From a virus: a stretch of DNA of 31,740 bases. Where the stretch lies: positions 1 through 31,740 of IMG/VR virus record IMGVR_UViG_3300044993_000462; one strand, given 5' to 3'. The notes under the pieces are model-generated. The model had not been told where the DNA came from and searched no databases. It saw only the letters and a list, made by a program, of their open reading frames with translations. A program made the position numbers and the translations under genes. Positions 1,640 to 9,879 of the stretch are shown piece by piece (position 1 is the stretch's first letter; every line of letters starts with the position of its first letter).

Positions 1640-2724
1640 GACAATACTTTTACGCTATAAATTTTACATTCATTTTTATTTTCTTTAAACCTCATAAACA
1701 AAAGAACAACCGAATATCTTTTAAGTTCTTTGGGGTATCTTACAACATTTTCTCCCCAATTTGGCCATATGACTCTTTCTGAGATTCTTCCGTCTATATC
1801 TACGGTCATTTTAAGAGCTTTTTTCTCGTTATCACTAAAGGAAAACTCTTTTGTATCAATGATATACGCAGGAACGCAGAAATTTATATCCTTTGAAAAC
1901 GGAGCACGTTTTTCCAGCTCAAAAAATTGATCTCCTGTCAGCATACAATACGCTATTCCTTTTTCATCTGAAAACATAGGTCTATTGGCCGTACCCTCGT
2001 TCATAAGGTTTGCAAAACGAGAAACTATAGCTGATAAGTTCATCGGCAAGGTAGGTAAAACCATCTTTTTTGCTATAAAATCTTGCAAAGGATTCATTGA
2101 TAAATATTCAGGGTCAACCTTACCTTTTGTTGGAGGCTTGGCTTTTTTACCTGCCGCTATTTTTTCTTCGTAAGCTACCTCTAAAACGGCATCTTCATAG
2201 ATCTGCATCTTTTCTAATAGGGTAGCTTCTTTAGGGAAAAGACTATCCATAACCCCAACATGGATAAGCCTTTTAGTTAAAGACGGACCTGCTACTTTTT
2301 TGCGTATAAAATCTTTTATATCAGAATAGGGAGCATTTTCTATGATAGGCTTAGCAACCGCTTCTCCAAGACCTCTCATAACAGTTAGCTTAGCTCTAAT
2401 CTTGTTTCTTTCGTAGTCAATTTCCATCTCATTTGATGAGAGGTTGATATCTGGAGGGATAACCTTGTCTTTGACGTGTTTGAATAGGGTTGTTGAGATT
2501 TCGCTTTCATCCGCGTTTGTCAATACCGACGCCCACCATTCCATTGGATAGTGATGTTTCAAATACATACAAGCGTATGTGATCATCGCATACGCAGTGG
2601 CGTGGGAGCAATTATGGGCTATTGCTCCGTTCTCTAAGATAAAATTATGATTTTTTGGCATCGATATATCATAAACTGATATTTTTTCTTTTTTTAGAAC
2701 TTTCTTCACTAAAAGCTTCTTCAT
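1636..2724 (-). CDS. dnaE: DNA polymerase III alpha, C-terminal half, with IntC of a split intein
   Basis: This gene makes 362 residues. Residues 1-38 are the C-terminal fragment of an intein: block F-like VYDISMPKNHNFIL and block G ending AHN, with penultimate His37 and Asn38, followed by Cys39 as the +1 residue. Residues 39-362 are the C-extein and begin CSHATAYAMITYACMYLK, the conserved DnaE motif usually written FNKSHxxxYA. They continue through the helix-hairpin-helix-like part (about residues 100-150, VMRGLGEAVAKPIIENAP) to a short C-terminal domain. It has its own AAGAAGG ribosome site seven bases before the ATG and lies 81 bases after the stop of the N-half gene. Trans-splicing with that product should give a polymerase of about 1190 residues, normal for DnaE. 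The gap has stops in the continuing frame, so a frameshift is an unlikely alternative. Confidence 0.93.
   Translation of the reverse strand: MKKLLVKKVLKKEKISVYDISMPKNHNFILENGAIAHNCSHATAYAMITYACMYLKHHYPMEWWASVLTNADESEISTTLFKHVKDKVIPPDINLSSNEMEIDYERNKIRAKLTVMRGLGEAVAKPIIENAPYSDIKDFIRKKVAGPSLTKRLIHVGVMDSLFPKEATLLEKMQIYEDAVLEVAYEEKIAAGKKAKPPTKGKVDPEYLSMNPLQDFIAKKMVLPTLPMNLSAIVSRFANLMNEGTANRPMFSDEKGIAYCMLTGDQFFELEKRAPFSKDINFCVPAYIIDTKEFSFSDNEKKALKMTVDIDGRISERVIWPNWGENVVRYPKELKRYSVVLLFMRFKENKNECKIYSVKVLS
2611..2724 (-). other. Split intein IntC in DnaE (38 aa)
   Basis: This encodes residues 1-38 of the DnaE C-half gene. The visible splicing residues are His37, Asn38 and the +1 Cys39. Its length is typical of natural IntC pieces (about 35-40 residues). 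The matching IntN is at 2809-3099. Confidence 0.92.
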
Positions 2725-2746
2725 ATTTTTGCCTTCTTTACCGTAT

Positions 2747-2790
2747 AATACCTCTTATCGGAATATTTGAAAGATATCTTTAGAGGTATT
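2747..2790 (-). repeat. Inverted repeat with inner palindrome between the two dnaE halves
   Basis: The 81-base gap between the split polymerase genes contains a perfect 9-base inverted repeat, AATACCTCT (2747-2755) and AGAGGTATT (2782-2790). The region between the arms holds a perfect 12-base palindrome, AAAGATATCTTT (2770-2781). The RNA could form a stem with an inner hairpin. No T-run follows, so an intrinsic terminator is not obvious. It may be a processing or stability element that sets the ratio of the two halves, or a scar of the event that split the intein. Confidence 0.5.
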
Positions 2791-2805
2791 TTATTGTATT
2801 TAAAT

Positions 2806-5706
2806 TTAGCTAATAGCATCGATTGGCAACTCTTTCTCTACAATTTCACTTAAAGTGAACCATTCGCCATTAGATAAAAATCTATGATCTGGCGTAGCCT
2901 TTATTATACTACCATCGCTAAGTTCCACTGTCCAGCATTCTTTTTCTCCCTGATACGCACCGAAATCGGGAGTTTCATATTCAACTTGTCCTGTTGCCTC
3001 ATTAAAACTTGCTACAATATGCCCAGATGGGTTTTTGGCTATTTCATCCAATCTTACTAAACCATTTTTCGTCTGGATCATTTGATCGCCCGCCAAGCAG
3101 TTAAAGGAATATCGAGAACTTGTCTCCATCTGCGACCAGATCATCTCAGCTTTTTCTTTTCCTACGGTTTTAACTGCACCTTCCATGAATAGGGGTTTCA
3201 TAGCAAGAGCTTTGGTTTTCTGTTTTTTAGAGAATACCCGACGTAGCTCTTCGGCATCGGTAGGTTGCATCTTACCGATCTCTTTAGCCACCAAAGATAC
3301 GGATTCTTGATAAACAAGTACACCGTAAGTCTCAGGTACAAGCTCAACAAGTTCAGGTAGTTTTATAGTTCCTCTACCCTTTCTACGCTCAATATATTCT
3401 TCTGCCATCGTTAATCCGGTGTCTGGGTCTACGAAGTCTAACGGACCTGGTCTAACTAGAGCTAAAATAGTAGCTAAATCAACTATCGATCTAGGCTTAA
3501 TTTTCATTACGAACGGAATCATAGATTGGGTGTTAATCTGAAATATGGTCTCTGTGTCGCCGTTCCATATTGACCTAAAAACCTCTTCCTCTTCAGGCAA
3601 GTCCCAAATATAGAGTTCTTTTCCGTTATGCATAAAATGGCCAGTTTTGAGGTTGCTTTTATTCTTTTTATTAATCCTATTTATACACCCCTCAATATCT
3701 TTTAACTGATTTACAACAAGAAAGTCATATTTGATGAGTTTGCATTTTTCAACACTCTTAGCTTCATATTGCGTAACGTTACCCATAAACACAGGGACAA
3801 CTTCGCTGATAGGTACATCAGATATGACAAAAGCCGAAGCGTGCTTTGAATTTTGACGGCTAATACCCAAACATCTTTGTACAAGCTCCCATTCTTTAGG
3901 TCTTTCGGTTGCGTACTTTTGAAGATCTGGGCTTACCTCGATAAGACCTGCCATATGGTTCCCATCAGAATCCTCAAAACCAAACACGAAATCCTTATCT
4001 GATACTCCCTGTGGAGGTGGCGGAAGGGCTTTTGAGAGTTTTTCAATTTCTGGATCTACAGTTCCATCGTTCAAATACCTATTCACATCACGAATAGCAC
4101 TTTTAAGTCTTAACTGAATTCTTGTAGATATCTGGGCTGCCTTGTCTCCCCATCGACCAAAAAGATAGCCTGAACGACCATCGGCTCCAACTAAAGGTTC
4201 GCGATCAACAAGGTCGACATCCACGTCTGGCATATCTCCGTTAAAGATACGGTTTAAAGAAAGAAAACGCTCAAAGCTAAGTTTGTACTTGATCGGGTCT
4301 ATGTTGGTAATACCCATCAAATACATAAAAAGAGATCCGCCAGCAGAGCCACGAGCAGGCCCTATAAGCCTTCCAGATCGATTGTAAAAATCTAGAACAT
4401 CACGAATAGGTAAAAAGTATGGAGTCAGATCAATCTTACCGTTCTTAGCTAGTACTGATACCTCATACTTTAATCGTCCGATATAAATCGGGTCGTTTTT
4501 AAGCCGTCCAGTATTTTTTATGATCTCCATACAGATCTGTAACGGATCTTTACCTTCTGGTACTTCAGGAAGTCGGTATTCAAATTTAAGATTAAAATCA
4601 TCAAAACGCTTCGCCCACAAGTTATTTTCTTCTAAAATTTTAGATATCTCAGCATCGCTTAGGCCAATTTTTCTCATATTAGCCACCGCTTCTTCTGAGG
4701 TTTGCATATGGCGTTTGGTGTGTTCTTTTATGTCGTCCTGTGAAAGCCTAACATCTTGTACCGCCTTATCTTCGGGAGTAGCGTAAAAAGCATAGTCAGA
4801 ATACAAAACCTTAACTCCATGTCGTTTTGCTAGCGCATACAAAAATTTATTTGCCTTTAACTGAACATCACCCTCGGGAAATTTCAAAAAACCATTGTGT
4901 GTTTTTGCTTTTAATATTTTAATTCCCGGCTCTGGGAAAGAGATGTTTGCATAATTTCGTTGATAGCTTTTTAGAAGATAGTGTTTATTAGGGTTTTCAA
5001 CAAGCTCTTTTGCTTGGGCATACCTTGCTGCGTTGGTAGAAACGCGCGTATCGGCAAATACAACGTCCTTCTTCCCGTTTGCAAGCTCAAATTCTACTAG
5101 GTTAACCCATGTGTGGGTTACTTCGTTTCCAACCAAAACAACGTAATAATTCTCGCCAAACATACTCTTAAGCTTAAGAAGTATCTTTTCTCCCAATTCT
5201 GGAGTACCAGTTAGGATATGCTTAGAGACCATATCGTGTATATCGCTTGAGCAGGCTATAAGCCCAGCGTTTGCACATTCTTTAATGTCATCCCATCCCC
5301 AAACAGGATAAGGCTCTCCGTAGTGCATAACCGTGTCGTTGCGCTCTTTTGAAGAAAGCTTGGATAGGACTTTGAATTGATCTTGGTTTTGAGCATATAA
5401 GGTCAATTTGAAGTAAGCGGCTTTTTCAGCTTTTGTTTTTTTTACAACCTCGCAATTCTTATCTTTAAAGAAGATTTCAAGCCCTGCGATAAATTGGAGT
5501 TTAGGTGTTGGTTTTCCGTTTTTGTCAGGCTTGCCATCGTATTTTTTACTGTACTCATAAGCTCTGAACAAGCTTGTCATGTAAGCAGGGTCTGTATAGG
5601 CAAAATGAGTGCGTCCAAGCTTTACAGCACGATCGATCATAGACTCTACCGTAGAGCCAGAAATAGGCGATTCGGGATGTGTGTGTGGACTAACTAAAAA
5701 ATTCAT
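2806..5706 (-). CDS. dnaE: DNA polymerase III alpha, N-terminal half, with IntN of a split intein
   Basis: This is the family C replicative polymerase, split. The gene makes 966 residues from the ATG at 5706, chosen over the in-frame GTG at 5709 because GGAG sits at a better distance. It contains an N-terminal PHP domain (SPHTHPESP, His8 and His10), the palm motif GPARGSAGGSL (449-459), catalytic Asp494 and Asp496 in PDVDVDL, the third Asp661 in KYDFLVV, ALVRPGPLDF (749-758) and ETYGVLVYQE (792-801). The extein ends SSRYSFN at 869. Cys870 starts the intein fragment CLAGDQMIQTKNGLVRLDEI, whose block B TPDHRF is intact, and the protein stops at 966 after about 97 intein residues. The insertion point lies inside the conserved FN-K-SH motif of DnaE. 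The gene overlaps the stop of the proofreading exonuclease (TGATG), so both are probably co-translated. Confidence 0.95.
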   Translation of the reverse strand: MNFLVSPHTHPESPISGSTVESMIDRAVKLGRTHFAYTDPAYMTSLFRAYEYSKKYDGKPDKNGKPTPKLQFIAGLEIFFKDKNCEVVKKTKAEKAAYFKLTLYAQNQDQFKVLSKLSSKERNDTVMHYGEPYPVWGWDDIKECANAGLIACSSDIHDMVSKHILTGTPELGEKILLKLKSMFGENYYVVLVGNEVTHTWVNLVEFELANGKKDVVFADTRVSTNAARYAQAKELVENPNKHYLLKSYQRNYANISFPEPGIKILKAKTHNGFLKFPEGDVQLKANKFLYALAKRHGVKVLYSDYAFYATPEDKAVQDVRLSQDDIKEHTKRHMQTSEEAVANMRKIGLSDAEISKILEENNLWAKRFDDFNLKFEYRLPEVPEGKDPLQICMEIIKNTGRLKNDPIYIGRLKYEVSVLAKNGKIDLTPYFLPIRDVLDFYNRSGRLIGPARGSAGGSLFMYLMGITNIDPIKYKLSFERFLSLNRIFNGDMPDVDVDLVDREPLVGADGRSGYLFGRWGDKAAQISTRIQLRLKSAIRDVNRYLNDGTVDPEIEKLSKALPPPPQGVSDKDFVFGFEDSDGNHMAGLIEVSPDLQKYATERPKEWELVQRCLGISRQNSKHASAFVISDVPISEVVPVFMGNVTQYEAKSVEKCKLIKYDFLVVNQLKDIEGCINRINKKNKSNLKTGHFMHNGKELYIWDLPEEEEVFRSIWNGDTETIFQINTQSMIPFVMKIKPRSIVDLATILALVRPGPLDFVDPDTGLTMAEEYIERRKGRGTIKLPELVELVPETYGVLVYQESVSLVAKEIGKMQPTDAEELRRVFSKKQKTKALAMKPLFMEGAVKTVGKEKAEMIWSQMETSSRYSFNCLAGDQMIQTKNGLVRLDEIAKNPSGHIVASFNEATGQVEYETPDFGAYQGEKECWTVELSDGSIIKATPDHRFLSNGEWFTLSEIVEKELPIDAIS
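2809..3099 (-). other. Split intein IntN in DnaE (97 aa)
   Basis: This encodes residues 870-966 of the N-half. Block A begins with Cys870 (CLAGD); block B is SDGSIIKATPDHRFL, with the usual Thr and His. The fragment ends with a native stop codon after LPIDAIS. It pairs with the IntC at 2611-2724; no endonuclease domain is present in either piece. Confidence 0.93.
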
Positions 5707-6338
5707 CACTTCTCCAGTACTGAAAGAATATCAAAAGAAAGTCCTCCATATCCTTCTACGTTTCTTTTCAACATCTGGATCATTTTATCATAAACTTCGA
5801 TCATCATCAAGACATCATCTTTAGCGGTATGCGCTTTTCTTTCTTGAATATTAAAATATCTAACCAAGCTTCCTAGATTTCCTACTGTTTCGGGAAGAAT
5901 CCCGATATCTTTTAGGATGTTTGTTAGTACAGATGTGCACGCAATACCATAATGAACGCTAGATTCCCATTCTTTTTGGGTCAATAGCTGCCGTGTAAAA
6001 TTTATATCAAAAGCTACGTTATGACCCAAGGGTCTTGGTTTTGATTTAGATATACCTTTAAATTCCTTAAGAAATGATTTTAGTTTAGCTGATGCCTCAA
6101 CCCTAGAAATAGTCTCAGGATCAGTATTATGTTTTTCAAGATCGATGCCGTTGACCTTCATAGCATCCTCTTCGATAAGATCAAAAGGAGCTTCAGGTCT
6201 AATCTTAAGCTCAAGATCTCCTAATATGTTTAAATTCTTATCAAGAGCAGCAAAATATCCGGTTAATATCGGGTTTTTAGATGGGTCAATCCCTCCAGTT
6301 TCAAAATCAAACGCGATGTATTTTGTTTCACTCATCAT
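5706..6338 (-). CDS. dnaQ: DnaQ-like 3'-5' proofreading exonuclease (DEDDh)
   Basis: This 210-residue exonuclease should proofread for the family C polymerase, which in bacteria lacks a built-in exonuclease and uses DnaQ/epsilon. The DEDDh motifs are all visible: ExoI AFDFETGG near residue 10, ExoII LGHNVAFDINF near residue 105, and ExoIII AHTAKDDVLMMIEVY near residue 170 with the His and Asp of the DEDDh subclass. It is close to the length of the exonuclease domain of epsilon. Two ATG codons follow a TTG at 6341; ATG 6338 or 6335 is preferred because AGGGG lies just upstream. The gene overlaps the small gene upstream by about 11 bases and its stop overlaps the dnaE start. The arrangement dnaQ-dnaE supports a polymerase-proofreader module. 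Confidence 0.93.
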   Translation of the reverse strand: MMSETKYIAFDFETGGIDPSKNPILTGYFAALDKNLNILGDLELKIRPEAPFDLIEEDAMKVNGIDLEKHNTDPETISRVEASAKLKSFLKEFKGISKSKPRPLGHNVAFDINFTRQLLTQKEWESSVHYGIACTSVLTNILKDIGILPETVGNLGSLVRYFNIQERKAHTAKDDVLMMIEVYDKMIQMLKRNVEGYGGLSFDILSVLEK

Positions 6339-6552
6339 CAACCCCTAGTAATTTTTTTAGATTTTCTATTGCTTCTTTATATATCCTATCAACTTCTTCT
6401 TTCTCCATCAAGAGAACTTTTGCGGCATGAGAAGATTCTACCCCTTCGTCGTGACGATGCATAAATTTTTCTAAAGAATTGCCGTATTTAGGACTGTATA
6501 TGAAGTCTGGTTCGGTTAAAATTCTTTCTTTTAATTTTTCTTTATTATTCAT
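6328..6552 (-). CDS. Small phage protein, 74 aa, with sigma region 4.2-like C-terminus
   Basis: This is a 74-residue protein of the pattern ILTEPDFIYSPKYGNSLEKF near the N-terminus followed by a helix-rich second half. The last 30 residues (AAKVLLMEKEEVDRIYKEAI, then ENLKKLL) resemble the helix-turn-helix of sigma region 4.2, in which a helix, a turn and a recognition helix end in a kLR-like segment. I have the impression of similar small proteins in marine T4-like phages, but I cannot verify it. The ATG overlaps the stop of isrB (ATGA), and the GGAG in front of it lies at the edge of the inserted element, so its expression now depends on the insertion junction. A DNA-binding or RNA-polymerase-binding role is inference only. 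Confidence 0.75.
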   Translation of the reverse strand: MNNKEKLKERILTEPDFIYSPKYGNSLEKFMHRHDEGVESSHAAKVLLMEKEEVDRIYKEAIENLKKLLGVDDE

Positions 6553-7589
6553 AGAAACTCCGCAAGGAAACCTCCTGTCTTTAGACAGGGGAGGAGCCGT
6601 GTCCTCCAGCTTGAATAAGCCAGAAACTTACACTCAGACGGCTTGGCGTTCTGGCACAACCTTTGACCATCCGTCAGCCTATGCAGGCTGATCCGATCTT
6701 TAAGAAATCCTCCCACATAACAGACTCCCCACTTGGGATGCTTGACCAGACTGCCGCGCTTGAGCCTCAAGCTCAGGGTGCCGCCATAGAGCCTGCGCAC
6801 CCCACCCTTGTCTGGTTTTAGGCGATGAAGCTGACGACGATGAAAACGAAGCGGCGTCACGCAAATAAGACGGGTATTGTCTGGTTGGGTGCGCCCGCCC
6901 ACCTCCGCATACGCCAACACCCAGGAATCCACACAATGGGCTTCGAAGACTTCCGCAGTTTTCTTGCCGATTTTCTTTAAGCCCAAAGCATCTCGAAGCT
7001 GTTTGGTCTCCCAGCCGCTTTTGGTTATTACAGGAGCGAGCTTGTCCAGTTCCTGATAAAACCATTGTTTCCCAACTTCAAGCGGGGAAAAGTGCACATC
7101 CCACTTTCTCTTACCCTTCGTCTTGGCTTTGATGTTCTCAACGACGAAGAGGGAAATGGGATATAGTTTGGTGAGAAACCGACTCAGTCTGAGCTTCCAT
7201 TGCCAGCGGGCTTTGGTGGAGGGCTGAATTCCTCCTCTTGCTCGGTTGAAGCGCGGCTGACGGCATGGAGTTTTACGGAAGCGGCGGCTCCTGCGCATCT
7301 GGCGGCGCTGTTCAACGTGGTCCTTGACCCAAGTGGCCGCATCGGCTTGGATGTTTAGATAGGTGTGGGTTGCCGATTTGACTGTAATACCTTCTTTCTT
7401 GGAGCCTGAGTCAATGCCCGTAACTACTTTCTGGACTTCTCGGTCAGAGGGTTCAACATTCAGTCGCACGCAGAATATTCCCCGTTTCCAAAATGGTGTC
7501 GCTTTCCCGCTCTTAATCCATCGCCTCGCCCGAGAGGGTGTCGTAGGCATCAGCGGCCTATTGTTTCGATCAACGACAGATACGAACAT
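6549..7589 (-). CDS. isrB: IsrB, HNH-lacking RNA-guided OMEGA nuclease
   Basis: IsrB proteins are IscB relatives that use an omega-RNA to nick DNA with a RuvC domain. From ATG 7589 the product is 346 residues, typical of IsrB. Visible in order: the N-terminal PLMP motif (RPLMPTTPSRARRWIKSGKA, 11-30), RuvC-I VTGIDSGSK with Asp60, an Arg-rich bridge helix (95-118), RuvC-II FVVENIK with Glu151, and RuvC-III EAHCVDSW with His218 and Asp221. Only about 65 residues separate RuvC-II and RuvC-III, so there is no room for the HNH domain of IscB. The C-terminal part has GGVRRLYGGT and the LVKHPKWGVCYVGG signature. This start has GGAGG eight bases upstream; an in-frame extension to 7688 would run into the omega-RNA region. 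The region is clearly more GC-rich than its neighbours, and the stop overlaps the next start (ATGA). Confidence 0.9.
   Translation of the reverse strand: MFVSVVDRNNRPLMPTTPSRARRWIKSGKATPFWKRGIFCVRLNVEPSDREVQKVVTGIDSGSKKEGITVKSATHTYLNIQADAATWVKDHVEQRRQMRRSRRFRKTPCRQPRFNRARGGIQPSTKARWQWKLRLSRFLTKLYPISLFVVENIKAKTKGKRKWDVHFSPLEVGKQWFYQELDKLAPVITKSGWETKQLRDALGLKKIGKKTAEVFEAHCVDSWVLAYAEVGGRTQPDNTRLICVTPLRFHRRQLHRLKPDKGGVRRLYGGTLSLRLKRGSLVKHPKWGVCYVGGFLKDRISLHRLTDGQRLCQNAKPSECKFLAYSSWRTRLLPCLKTGGFLAEFL
6571..6594 (-). repeat. Right-end hairpin of the IS200/605-like element
   Basis: CCTCCTGTC and GACAGGGGAGG flank a TTTA loop, forming an imperfect hairpin. It lies inside the 3' end of isrB, as expected for IS200/605-family right ends that overlap the accessory gene. 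Such hairpins are the binding sites of the Y1 transposase. Confidence 0.75.
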
Positions 7590-7906
7590 GCGATAAGCCT
7601 CCGTTTGGAGTATGTACATCCCTTCGGGACTGACCAACGCATAGGATGCAGACTTGGGAAGCATCCGCATCGTGCCTTGGGCTGCCACGCCCAGTTGGTT
7701 CAGTTGCCTTCAAACGCCCCACGGACACTGTTACCAGGCCGCGTTGCTCGGTTACCCTAGTCTTTCTCGCTGCTCCCAGTCGATTTTCCGATCGTTTTTC
7801 GAACTTCTCGGACAGGTCGATCCTTCTGGGCAGATTCAGCGCCTTGTAGTTTCTGGCTGGCAAAGTCGTACTCCTTTCAACAAGCCCCCGACTTAAGTCG
7901 AAGGTA
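7590..7906 (-). ncRNA. Putative omega-RNA of IsrB
   Basis: About 300 bases lie between the left-end palindrome and the isrB start, matching the known position and size of IsrB omega-RNAs (upstream of the gene, guide at the 5' end). The region is GC-rich, lacks a convincing coding frame, and can form several stems, for example GGATGC with GCATCC at 7644-7666 and GGGC/GCCC just upstream. The scaffold would run into the isrB ribosome site. The guide would be read from phage DNA flanking the element (about 7922-7907). The call rests on context and local stems, not on a covariance model, and the exact ends are unknown. Confidence 0.6.
7889..7900 (-). repeat. Left-end palindrome of the IS200/605-like element
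   Basis: CGACTTAAGTCG is a perfect 12-base palindrome next to the inferred left border, followed on the minus strand by GGGGG. It is the likely transposase-recognition hairpin and marks the 5' end of the omega-RNA scaffold. Confidence 0.65.
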
Positions 7907-8279
7907 CTTGACTGTTTTTCCTCTTAAATTCTAAAATTTTCGGTTCAGAATTTTTTTTGAGATTTTCAAGAGTATCGGTCATTTCTTTTAATTTTTTATT
8001 TAATTTTTTTATCGCAGAATCTATAGATATAAGATCTTCTTCCAGAGATTCCAGTTGTTTTTTAGCAAGGTTTTTAGATTTAACTACTTTTTGATATTCC
8101 CCAGCAATAGGAATAACATTTCTTTTCGTTAAGTATTTTAAGTTCTGTTCTGATACTTTTATAAAATGTATCAGGTCAGATTTTTTTAAATATAATCTTA
8201 CTCTAAACTTAGACGTTTCCTCTAAGTCTTTGCGAATTTTTTCTATGGCTTTTTCGATCTCGGTAATATTGTTTTTCAC
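7893..8279 (-). CDS. Coiled-coil hypothetical protein, 3' end altered by the insertion
   Basis: This gene makes 128 residues from a GTG at 8279, ten bases downstream of the end of the upstream gene's stop codon. An in-frame ATG at 8309 would overlap that gene by 23 bases and is less likely. Almost the whole protein is charged and helical (KNNITEIEKAIEKIRKDLEE, then LEEDLISIDSAIKKLNKKLK further on) and should form coiled coils. The function is unknown. The last four codons (VPST and the stop) come from the left end of the insertion element, so the native C-terminus has been replaced. Depending on the exact border, the original gene either ended a few codons later in an ATGA overlap with the 74-residue gene or was fused to it in frame. 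Confidence 0.65.
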   Translation of the reverse strand: MKNNITEIEKAIEKIRKDLEETSKFRVRLYLKKSDLIHFIKVSEQNLKYLTKRNVIPIAGEYQKVVKSKNLAKKQLESLEEDLISIDSAIKKLNKKLKEMTDTLENLKKNSEPKILEFKRKNSQVPST

Positions 8280-8286
8280 AAAACAC

Positions 8287-9879
8287 CTACAATCTCCATT
8301 TCCCCTCAATTACGTTGATAAGCTGTCTAGTGCCGTCAGAATATACGATGGCTTGGCTATTGTCCCAAGAACTAGCACCCCTGTTGTAGGATAATTTTCT
8401 ATGCGTCGAAGTTCCGACAGACCAAGCCTCATGCCACATCTCACCATAGTGACAATGACCATAGATAACCTTACCATAGGCTTTGTACATACCTTTTGAG
8501 CCGGGGTTCTTTTTACCGTTAGCTCCAAGATCTCCATGGGCTCCAAGCTCGATACCCGCAACCCGAAAATCCTGATCTCGCTCAAGCCATATAATATCTG
8601 AGCCAAACTTTACGCCCATCATTTCTAATGCCGCTTTAAGCGGATCTTTACCTTCCATCGCAAGCACTTGTAACTTTGTAGATATTACACGGTTAATGTC
8701 GTCAAATTTTCCCTCGGCAAGATAGCGATCTAAGAACTCGTCGTGGTTCGATTTTGCAAAAACAAGCTTTTGAGATGTTTTAAGTTTCTGTTTTTCTTTT
8801 ATCACCTTAGCGTTTTCTTCGAGCTCTTTTTCAAGGCTTATTCGGTTTTCGCTTGCAAGTCTTGCTCGTAAAACTTTATTTTTTATCTCATGGTGGTTAA
8901 TTGAGACGCCACTAAAAAAATCGTGGAATACCCTATATTTTGGTTTACCAAGCGCGCACATCTCATCTACCGCCTTGTCCACTAAAGGATCTGTTTCGGT
9001 TACATGATAATCCCCCTGAATAATAGCTTCACACCCTATAAAGCTTTTCTTTCCATCTGGGGAATATTTATAAAATAAATCGTTGAAAGACCCGTCTTTG
9101 CACATTTGAATAGGTCTAAAATGATAATAGACATCATCTACGATTTCGATAACTATCGCGCCCATTTTATGGTGAGCCTCAGCTAATCGGTCTCGACGCT
9201 TCGGAATCTTATCTGAAGGAATATATCTAGGTCTAGTAATTGCCCCTGTTGATTGTATGATACGGGCAAGCTTGGTATTAGAGTTTGCAACAGGAACCCT
9301 TCTCTGTTTAGGGCTACCTATGATAACAGTACCGTCAGTTTGTCCTAAGGCGTCTAAACCAACAACGGGGTCTACTTGCTTTGGATCTATTTTAATAGGG
9401 TCTATATAGATGTTAGAGTTAAGTTTTAGCGGTTTAAAAACGATATTGATATCTGAATCCATTATAAGCTCAGGGTCTATGTCGTATAGAGCATAGTTTG
9501 CAGGTATCAAAAGAAACATAGCCTTATTTATAGAACAGTAATTCTTTAAAGAATCTAAAAAATTCTTGTGAACTGGAGCCCCAGCTACAGCGGTAGTCAC
9601 TATAAATCTTTTATATTTCTTAGCTTGTTCTTTTAGATCATCAAAGACTTGAGTAGAAAAGACTTCTGGAGAGATAACGTTTTCAAAACTTTTGGGACTA
9701 AGGTTTTTAGCATACTCTTTTAGAGATTCCATATCTCCAAAATGATCTCTGATCATATCCCTAGATATGTTAGCCTTTTTTATAAGATCAGATCTTGAGG
9801 GATATGATTTTAGTTTCTTAGCAAGCTTAGCATAAGCTAAAGCTATTTGGTCTTTTCGACTCGCTGTCTTTGACAACAT
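8287..9879 (-). CDS. Calcineurin-like metallophosphoesterase, possibly T5 A1-like
   Basis: This is a 530-residue protein. The C-terminal half carries a full set of metal ligands of the calcineurin-like phosphoesterase fold: GDYH (289-292), Asp320 in FHDFFSG, SNHDEF (377-382), His448 in GAHGD, and GHCHYG (474-479). Residues 1-60 look like a helix-turn-helix or SAM-like DNA-binding segment (SYPSRSDLIKKANISRDMIR). Residues 90-240 contain an alpha/beta region of unknown type. The size and layout recall the T5 pre-early A1 protein and its relatives in other phages, which are linked to host DNA degradation, but that match is from memory and not tested. Its start is one base beyond the preceding gene's TAG. 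A nuclease or phosphatase acting on host DNA is the most reasonable guess. Confidence 0.75.
   Translation of the reverse strand: MLSKTASRKDQIALAYAKLAKKLKSYPSRSDLIKKANISRDMIRDHFGDMESLKEYAKNLSPKSFENVISPEVFSTQVFDDLKEQAKKYKRFIVTTAVAGAPVHKNFLDSLKNYCSINKAMFLLIPANYALYDIDPELIMDSDINIVFKPLKLNSNIYIDPIKIDPKQVDPVVGLDALGQTDGTVIIGSPKQRRVPVANSNTKLARIIQSTGAITRPRYIPSDKIPKRRDRLAEAHHKMGAIVIEIVDDVYYHFRPIQMCKDGSFNDLFYKYSPDGKKSFIGCEAIIQGDYHVTETDPLVDKAVDEMCALGKPKYRVFHDFFSGVSINHHEIKNKVLRARLASENRISLEKELEENAKVIKEKQKLKTSQKLVFAKSNHDEFLDRYLAEGKFDDINRVISTKLQVLAMEGKDPLKAALEMMGVKFGSDIIWLERDQDFRVAGIELGAHGDLGANGKKNPGSKGMYKAYGKVIYGHCHYGEMWHEAWSVGTSTHRKLSYNRGASSWDNSQAIVYSDGTRQLINVIEGKWRL

What the first reader, a model, noticed from the sequence alone, without database searches (positions are those of the whole stretch)
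6561..7906. OMEGA (IsrB) element inserted in a phage replication operon
A GC-rich IS200/605-like insert with no transposase carries IsrB with Asp60, Glu151 and Asp221 conserved and without an HNH domain. An omega-RNA-sized region is present between the left-end palindrome and isrB. It sits between the phosphoesterase/coiled-coil genes and the dnaQ-dnaE module of a phage already loaded with inteins. RNA-guided nickases resident in phage replication loci are, to my knowledge, poorly described.
Basis: partly seen in the sequence, partly recalled or inferred. Interest (0 to 1): 0.8.

Follow-up and report, generated by a model that had tools for sequence, protein, structure and literature searches.

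The report
RNA-guided nickase element in a phage
A phage carries an intact mobile element encoding IsrB, an RNA-guided DNA-nicking relative of the ancestor of Cas9, inserted exactly in front of the start codon of a small phage gene; it is a good new example of a known family, and its relatives hint that phages use such elements the way they use homing endonucleases.

Summary
Window 6553-7912 (1,360 bp, 53% GC in a 37% GC phage) is an IS200/IS605-like element without transposase, carrying an intact isrB (346 aa, RuvC D60/E151/H218/D221, no HNH) that matches the solved DtIsrB structure. It has a real omega-RNA: a covariance model built from 40 relatives, window excluded, finds it at E = 1e-29. 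Two related phages have the same gene order without the element, so this is an insertion. It lies between the ribosome-binding site and start codon of a small conserved gene. The right flank, ATGA, is the target-adjacent motif (TAM) expected for IsrB; the inferred guide is the left flank. Compared with a 91%-identical copy elsewhere, isrB is under purifying selection (dN/dS 0.17). About 80 viral loci hold relatives, so this is a new member of a known kind. Best mechanism: TnpA-mobilised in trans, kept and spread by RNA-guided nicking of empty alleles. Activity is untested.

The parts
6553..7912 (-). Whole IsrB element (1,360 bp), 5' GTCAAGTACC... to ...GGAGTTTCT 3' on the minus strand; left edge uncertain by 1 base (7911 or 7912)
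   Evidence: The 91.6%-identical copy L003 matches to 7913 on the left and 6566 on the right; left-end consensus GTCAAC.ACC across relatives; empty sites in L039/L040
6549..7589 (-). isrB, 346 aa; its TGA stop codon is part of the ATGA of the right flank and overlaps the next start codon
   Evidence: ORF; RRXRR E 7e-35; PDB 8dmb DtIsrB, sequence E 9e-37 and fold E 2.6e-27
7605..7709 (-). Conserved core of the omega-RNA (four helices)
   Evidence: cmsearch 107 bits, E 1.1e-29 with a model built without window and L003; 278 double-sided compensatory cells, 95% paired
7590..7912 (-). Omega-RNA scaffold region as a whole, from left end to isrB start; contains a ~60-nt variable insertion relative to L003
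   Evidence: Alignment to L003; size agrees with the ~300-nt omega-RNA of DtIsrB (PMC9581776)
7913..7932 (-). Inferred guide, 5'-AGAATTTAAGAGGAAAAACA-3', copied from the phage flank; includes the AAGAGG ribosome-binding-site-like motif that preceded the ATG before insertion
   Evidence: Position immediately 5' of the left end, as in DtIsrB (PMC9581776); the exact guide end is inferred
7889..7900 (-). Left-end palindrome CGACTTAAGTCG (guide adaptor / transposon end)
6574..6589 (-). Right-end palindrome CCTGTCTAAAGACAGG
   Evidence: same form in most relatives
6549..6552 (-). ATGA: flanking target-adjacent motif and start codon of the downstream gene
   Evidence: matches NTGA of DtIsrB (PMC9581776)
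6328..6552 (-). Downstream phage gene, 74 aa, conserved in L039 and in the homologous sequence of L040; function unknown
7893..8309 (-). Upstream coiled-coil phage gene; its own sequence ends near 7913 and the element adds the codons SQVPST and a stop
   Evidence: Comparison with L039/L040
5706..6341 (-). dnaQ-like exonuclease
   Evidence: RNase_T E 3e-7
2806..5709 (-). dnaE N-terminal part with N-terminal intein segment
8287..9879 (-). T5 A1-like DNA transfer protein
   Evidence: phrog_1745 E 5.5e-87

Best explanation
This is a non-autonomous IS200/IS605-type OMEGA element encoding an IsrB nickase and its omega-RNA. Inferred movement: a TnpA transposase supplied in trans (host or co-infecting element) inserted it next to ATGA, between the ribosome-binding site and start codon of a small phage gene. 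The omega-RNA would be transcribed with the operon, so its 5' guide is the phage sequence left of the element; with the ATGA on the right this describes exactly the empty allele. IsrB would nick empty alleles (excision products, sister genomes, co-infecting relatives) and recombination would copy the element back, as shown for the related nuclease TnpB on plasmids (PMC11870625). The insertion is probably nearly neutral because the element supplies a stop codon upstream, a GGAG six bases before the ATG, and an isrB stop that overlaps the start codon. Shown by sequence: anatomy, intact active site, omega-RNA, insertion with empty sites, TAM-like flank, purifying selection. Inferred: expression, nicking, homing, TnpA in trans.
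For: Fold and sequence match DtIsrB. Catalytic residues are invariant, and TAM-reading R310/Q313 correspond to DtIsrB R323/Q326 by alignment (PMC9581776). Omega-RNA core E 1.1e-29 from an independent model, with strong covariation. Empty sites in two relatives. Right flank ATGA equals the expected TAM. A 91.6%-identical copy sits at a different locus, upstream of what looks like a terminase gene, again directly before ATGA. dN/dS 0.17, p 1e-13, between the two copies. Among phage loci, Gln at position 313 goes with xTGA 49 to 1 and Arg/Lys with xTGG 11 to 1, as expected if IsrB reads this flank.
Against: No expression or activity data. No TnpA in the 31.7-kb record, which is a fragment. The nearest empty relatives are only about 70-79% identical in DNA and their sites no longer match the inferred guide well, so no perfect natural target was found. 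Many TAM boundaries in relatives were read by eye, and only four phylogenetically independent pairs stand on well-supported branches (all or nearly all agree, sign test median p 0.125). A nickase makes a weaker drive than a double-strand nuclease.
Confidence: 0.75

Rival explanations
1. A passenger insertion sequence that arrived by transposition and has no lasting role in the phage; isrB is intact only because arrival is recent.
For: GC 53% against 37% points to foreign origin; no transposase in the record; mixed phage and bacterial branches in the tree.
Against: dN/dS 0.17 since divergence from the L003 copy; intact omega-RNA, ends and TAM-reading residues. Purifying selection could, however, have acted in bacterial hosts before arrival.
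Confidence: 0.15
2. A domesticated RNA-guided regulator or anti-competitor factor, used by the phage against other genomes rather than for the element's own spread.
For: The inferred guide is the start region of a phage gene, so IsrB would bind or nick related phages lacking the element; the operon position would give expression with replication genes.
Against: Both transposon ends and all catalytic residues are kept, unlike nuclease-dead repressors of the TnpB family; the guide is the local flank, not a chosen foreign target.
Confidence: 0.05
3. A pure homing element that moves only by recombination after nicking and no longer by TnpA.
For: Some relatives in large phages lack the right-end palindrome and their records show no TnpA above the family cut-off (L017, L021, L025, L035, L037, L059).
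Against: The window copy retains both ends, and the near-identical copy L003 is at a different locus in unrelated sequence, which recombinational homing does not explain.
Confidence: 0.05

Closest known systems
DtIsrB, Desulfovirgula thermocuniculi (PDB 8dmb; PMC9581776)
   Same: Domain order PLMP-RuvC-TI, ~350 aa, no HNH, RuvC active site, ~300-nt omega-RNA upstream, NTGA TAM with Arg and Gln reading it
   Different: About 30% identity by structure alignment; from a bacterium, not a phage; the window copy lies within a phage operon at a start codon
K2IsrB from a viral metagenome contig (PMC9581776)
   Same: IsrB of viral-metagenome origin with a working omega-RNA
   Different: Its genomic setting is not described in the passages read; reported TAM is NTG
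RRXRR gene gp171 of Microcystis phage Ma-LMM01 (NC_008562)
   Same: isrB with right-end palindrome directly before the ATGA start of gp170, beside a clamp-loader gene
   Different: 35-39% identity; repeated left-end units
IscB / HEARO (PDB 7utn; Rfam RF02033)
   Same: PLMP, split RuvC, omega-RNA upstream
   Different: IscB has an HNH domain; Rfam models do not hit this RNA
TnpB gene drive on plasmids (PMC11870625)
   Same: IS200/IS605 guide RNA copied from the insertion site, used to cut empty copies
   Different: TnpB cleaves double-stranded DNA and is the likely ancestor of Cas12; shown on plasmids, not phages

Membership tests
IsrB (OMEGA) | N-terminal PLMP domain | tested here: met
   PLMPTTPSRARRWIKSGKA, P12-P15 conserved; RRXRR E 7e-35
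IsrB (OMEGA) | RuvC I-III catalytic residues | tested here: met
   D60, E151, H218, D221 invariant in 35 sequences
IsrB (OMEGA) | No HNH domain between RuvC II and III | tested here: met
   Pfam none; short linker; best fold match is IsrB, then IscB
IsrB (OMEGA) | Conserved structured omega-RNA directly upstream | tested here: met
   E 1.1e-29, independent model; covariation 0/500 shuffles
IsrB (OMEGA) | TAM (NTGA) in the 3' flank of the insertion | tested here: met
   ATGA flank; insertion shown by empty sites in relatives
IsrB (OMEGA) | Guide transcribed from the 5' flank | tested here: inconclusive
   Position fits, but use of the flank as guide is inferred; no RNA data
IsrB (OMEGA) | RNA-guided nicking of the non-target strand | not testable with these tools
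   needs biochemistry
IS200/IS605 superfamily element | Subterminal palindromes, no target duplication | tested here: met
   both palindromes; no duplication seen against L039/L040
IS200/IS605 superfamily element | Mobilised by Y1 transposase TnpA | tested here: inconclusive
   none in the 31.7-kb fragment; may act in trans
IscB | HNH domain | tested here: not met
Homing endonuclease-like element | Occupied and empty alleles in related genomes at one site | tested here: met
   L039, L040 empty
Homing endonuclease-like element | Super-Mendelian transfer in crosses | not testable with these tools
   needs mixed infections
Nuclease-dead guide-RNA repressor (TldR-like) | Loss of RuvC catalytic residues | tested here: not met
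   active site intact

The most novel reading that the evidence does not exclude
Phage IsrB elements form an RNA-guided counterpart of homing endonucleases whose TAM is typically the start codon itself (ATG plus the next base) and whose guide is the ribosome-binding region; in several large phages they have shed the transposon right end and rely only on nick-induced recombination with co-conversion of flanks.
Probability: 0.4. Interest if true: 0.75.

Novelty: new member of a known kind. Interest (0 to 1): 0.45.

Why it matters
[quoted passage not shown] A phage copy with an intact active site, a verified omega-RNA, an inferred guide and TAM, and natural empty relatives is a directly testable system for whether RNA-guided nickases act as gene drives in viruses. 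The residue-313/TAM link seen across relatives also gives a simple sequence rule for predicting TAMs of new IsrBs.

Tried and rejected
Rfam at gathering threshold and at E up to 1 found nothing, so the omega-RNA was tested with a home-made model. Folding the whole region alone was not informative (z -1.4); covariation was. A search for close relatives through dnaQ failed; the A1-like gene worked. An automatic rule for right-end boundaries misplaced several sites; the TAM table therefore mixes rule-based and hand-read boundaries. The nuclease-dead regulator and IscB assignments were rejected on active-site and HNH evidence. The L017 downstream gene had no relatives for an empty-site test.

Full report
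WHAT IS THERE. The window is a 31,740-base viral record with T5-A1-like, SbcC/SbcD-like, helicase, dnaQ, dnaE, groEL and terminase genes. Between 6553 and 7912, on the minus strand, lies a GC-rich (53% against 37%) insert. It encodes a 346-aa protein, start ATG at 7589, stop TGA at 6551-6549. The protein matches Pfam RRXRR at 7e-35, NCBIfam IscB only partly and below cut-off, and in the PDB best DtIsrB, 8dmb, at 9e-37. An AlphaFold model (pLDDT 82) matches 8dmb first (Foldseek E 2.6e-27), then IscBs. D60, E151, H218 and D221 are invariant among 35 aligned sequences. The two residues that read the TAM in DtIsrB, R323 and Q326 (PMC9581776), correspond to R310 and Q313 in the phmmer alignment; I derived this correspondence from the spacing and the alignment.

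OMEGA-RNA. Rfam does not recognise the region. I aligned the conserved ~105-nt core upstream of isrB from 40 relatives, leaving out the window and its close copy L003, and built a covariance model. It finds the window at 7605-7709 with 107 bits, E 1.1e-29, and L003, and nothing in the two empty relatives. The four helices carry 278 double-sided compensatory cells, 95% of cells are paired, and none of 500 shuffles reaches these values. This is strong evidence for a functional RNA.

INSERTION AND EMPTY SITES. Two IMG/VR contigs, L039 and L040, have the same genes at 84-87% protein identity in the A1-like gene and no element. In them the coiled-coil gene ends in a stop overlapping the start of a small conserved gene (TAATG and TAGTG). 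In the window the element separates the two: left flank ...AAGAGGAAAAACA, element GTCAAG...GTTTCT, right flank ATGAATAATAAA. The element thus lies between the ribosome-binding region and the start codon. It gives the upstream gene a few extra codons and a stop, places GGAG six bases before the ATG, and its isrB stop TGA overlaps that ATG. The base before TCAA is G in nearly all relatives (38 of 40), so the left edge is uncertain by one base.

MOBILITY AND SELECTION. L003 carries the same element (91.6% DNA identity over 1,214 bases) in other phage DNA, upstream of genes that look like terminase subunits (by eye), again directly before ATGA. Between the two copies dN/dS is 0.17 (p 1e-13), so the protein has been kept functional since they split, although not necessarily in phages all that time. 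In a tree of 144 IsrBs phage and bacterial sequences are mixed; well-supported branches force at least five changes of label. No TnpA is in the window record; among 36 viral records searched, 7 hold one above cut-off, and all 7 carry IsrB copies with a palindromic right end.

FAMILY-WIDE PATTERNS. The residue aligned with DtIsrB Q326 (window Q313) and the fourth base of the right flank go together: in phage loci Gln with A 49 and with G 1, Arg or Lys with A 1 and with G 11 (Fisher p 3e-10, ignoring relatedness). Four independent pairs on supported branches all or nearly all agree, too few for significance alone. Boundaries were partly hand-read. The Q326R mutant in PMC9581776 gains activity on TTGG and ATGG, so the natural pattern has a biochemical counterpart. 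The boundary NTGR opens an ORF of 60 aa or more in 25 of 42 phage and 38 of 52 bacterial loci, against 28-29% background (p 1e-5 and 5e-11). Insertion in front of start codons is thus a tendency of the family, most simply because ATG plus A is both a TAM and a start, and such insertions are tolerated.

HOW IT MOST LIKELY WORKS. Shown: anatomy, RNA, active site, insertion, TAM-like flank, selection. Inferred: TnpA in trans moves the element; the omega-RNA, transcribed with the operon, begins with about 20 nt of left flank; IsrB nicks the empty allele; recombination restores the element. TnpB has been shown to do the equivalent on plasmids (PMC11870625), and replicating phage genomes are likewise multicopy. 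A case in relatives fits: L020 and L290/L291 are identical in DNA on both sides at a distance, but L020 has isrB with about 400 nt of different DNA on its left and about 210 nt of mostly synonymous change on its right, followed by about 1,000 identical bases, as co-conversion would leave. Ordinary recombination with a diverged phage would also do.

VERDICT. The element is a new member of a known kind. Phage residence is common in IMG/VR and exists in cultivated Microcystis phages; the open-access papers searched say little about it, and two key papers (Altae-Tran 2021, Kapitonov 2015) could not be read, so claims of novelty about start-codon targeting or phage homing remain provisional.

Noticed in passing
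L020 against L290 and L291 (portal gene start): Near-identical phages with and without isrB; around isrB L020 has about 400 nt of different DNA on the left and about 210 nt of mostly synonymous change on the right, then 100% identity. The portal gene's first codons occur on both sides of the element in diverged form. Looks like a co-conversion tract.
   Followed up: partly
L370 and L371 (Microcystis phages MaMV-DL01, MaMV-DL02), 1519-2189: An HTH-HNH homing-endonuclease-like gene replaces most of isrB between the two ends of the IsrB element present in Ma-LMM01 and other MaMV phages.
   Followed up: partly
L001/L025, L017, L019, L020, L021, L035, L037, L055, L057: IsrB loci, several in phages of 160-545 kb, without a recognisable right-end palindrome; isrB ends within some 45 nt of the next start codon, and no TnpA above cut-off was found in those records that were searched.
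   Followed up: partly
window 2608-3098: dnaE appears to be split by a split intein: ORF 2806-5709 ends in an intein N-part and ORF 1636-2724 begins with what looks like an intein C-part; relative L040 lacks exactly this stretch (alignment jumps from 2607 to 3099).
   Followed up: partly
L071, L074, L075, L079 (one 327-kb viral contig, IMGVR_UViG_3300023213_000432): Several closely related isrB copies in one record together with a TnpA, directly before ATGA: apparent proliferation within a large phage genome.
   Followed up: no
L002 2660-2800 (Microcystis phage Ma-LMM01): The left end of the IsrB element contains several tandem copies of a short palindromic unit (GTGTCGCTAACCCC...CCTAAGGCGAC).
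   Followed up: no
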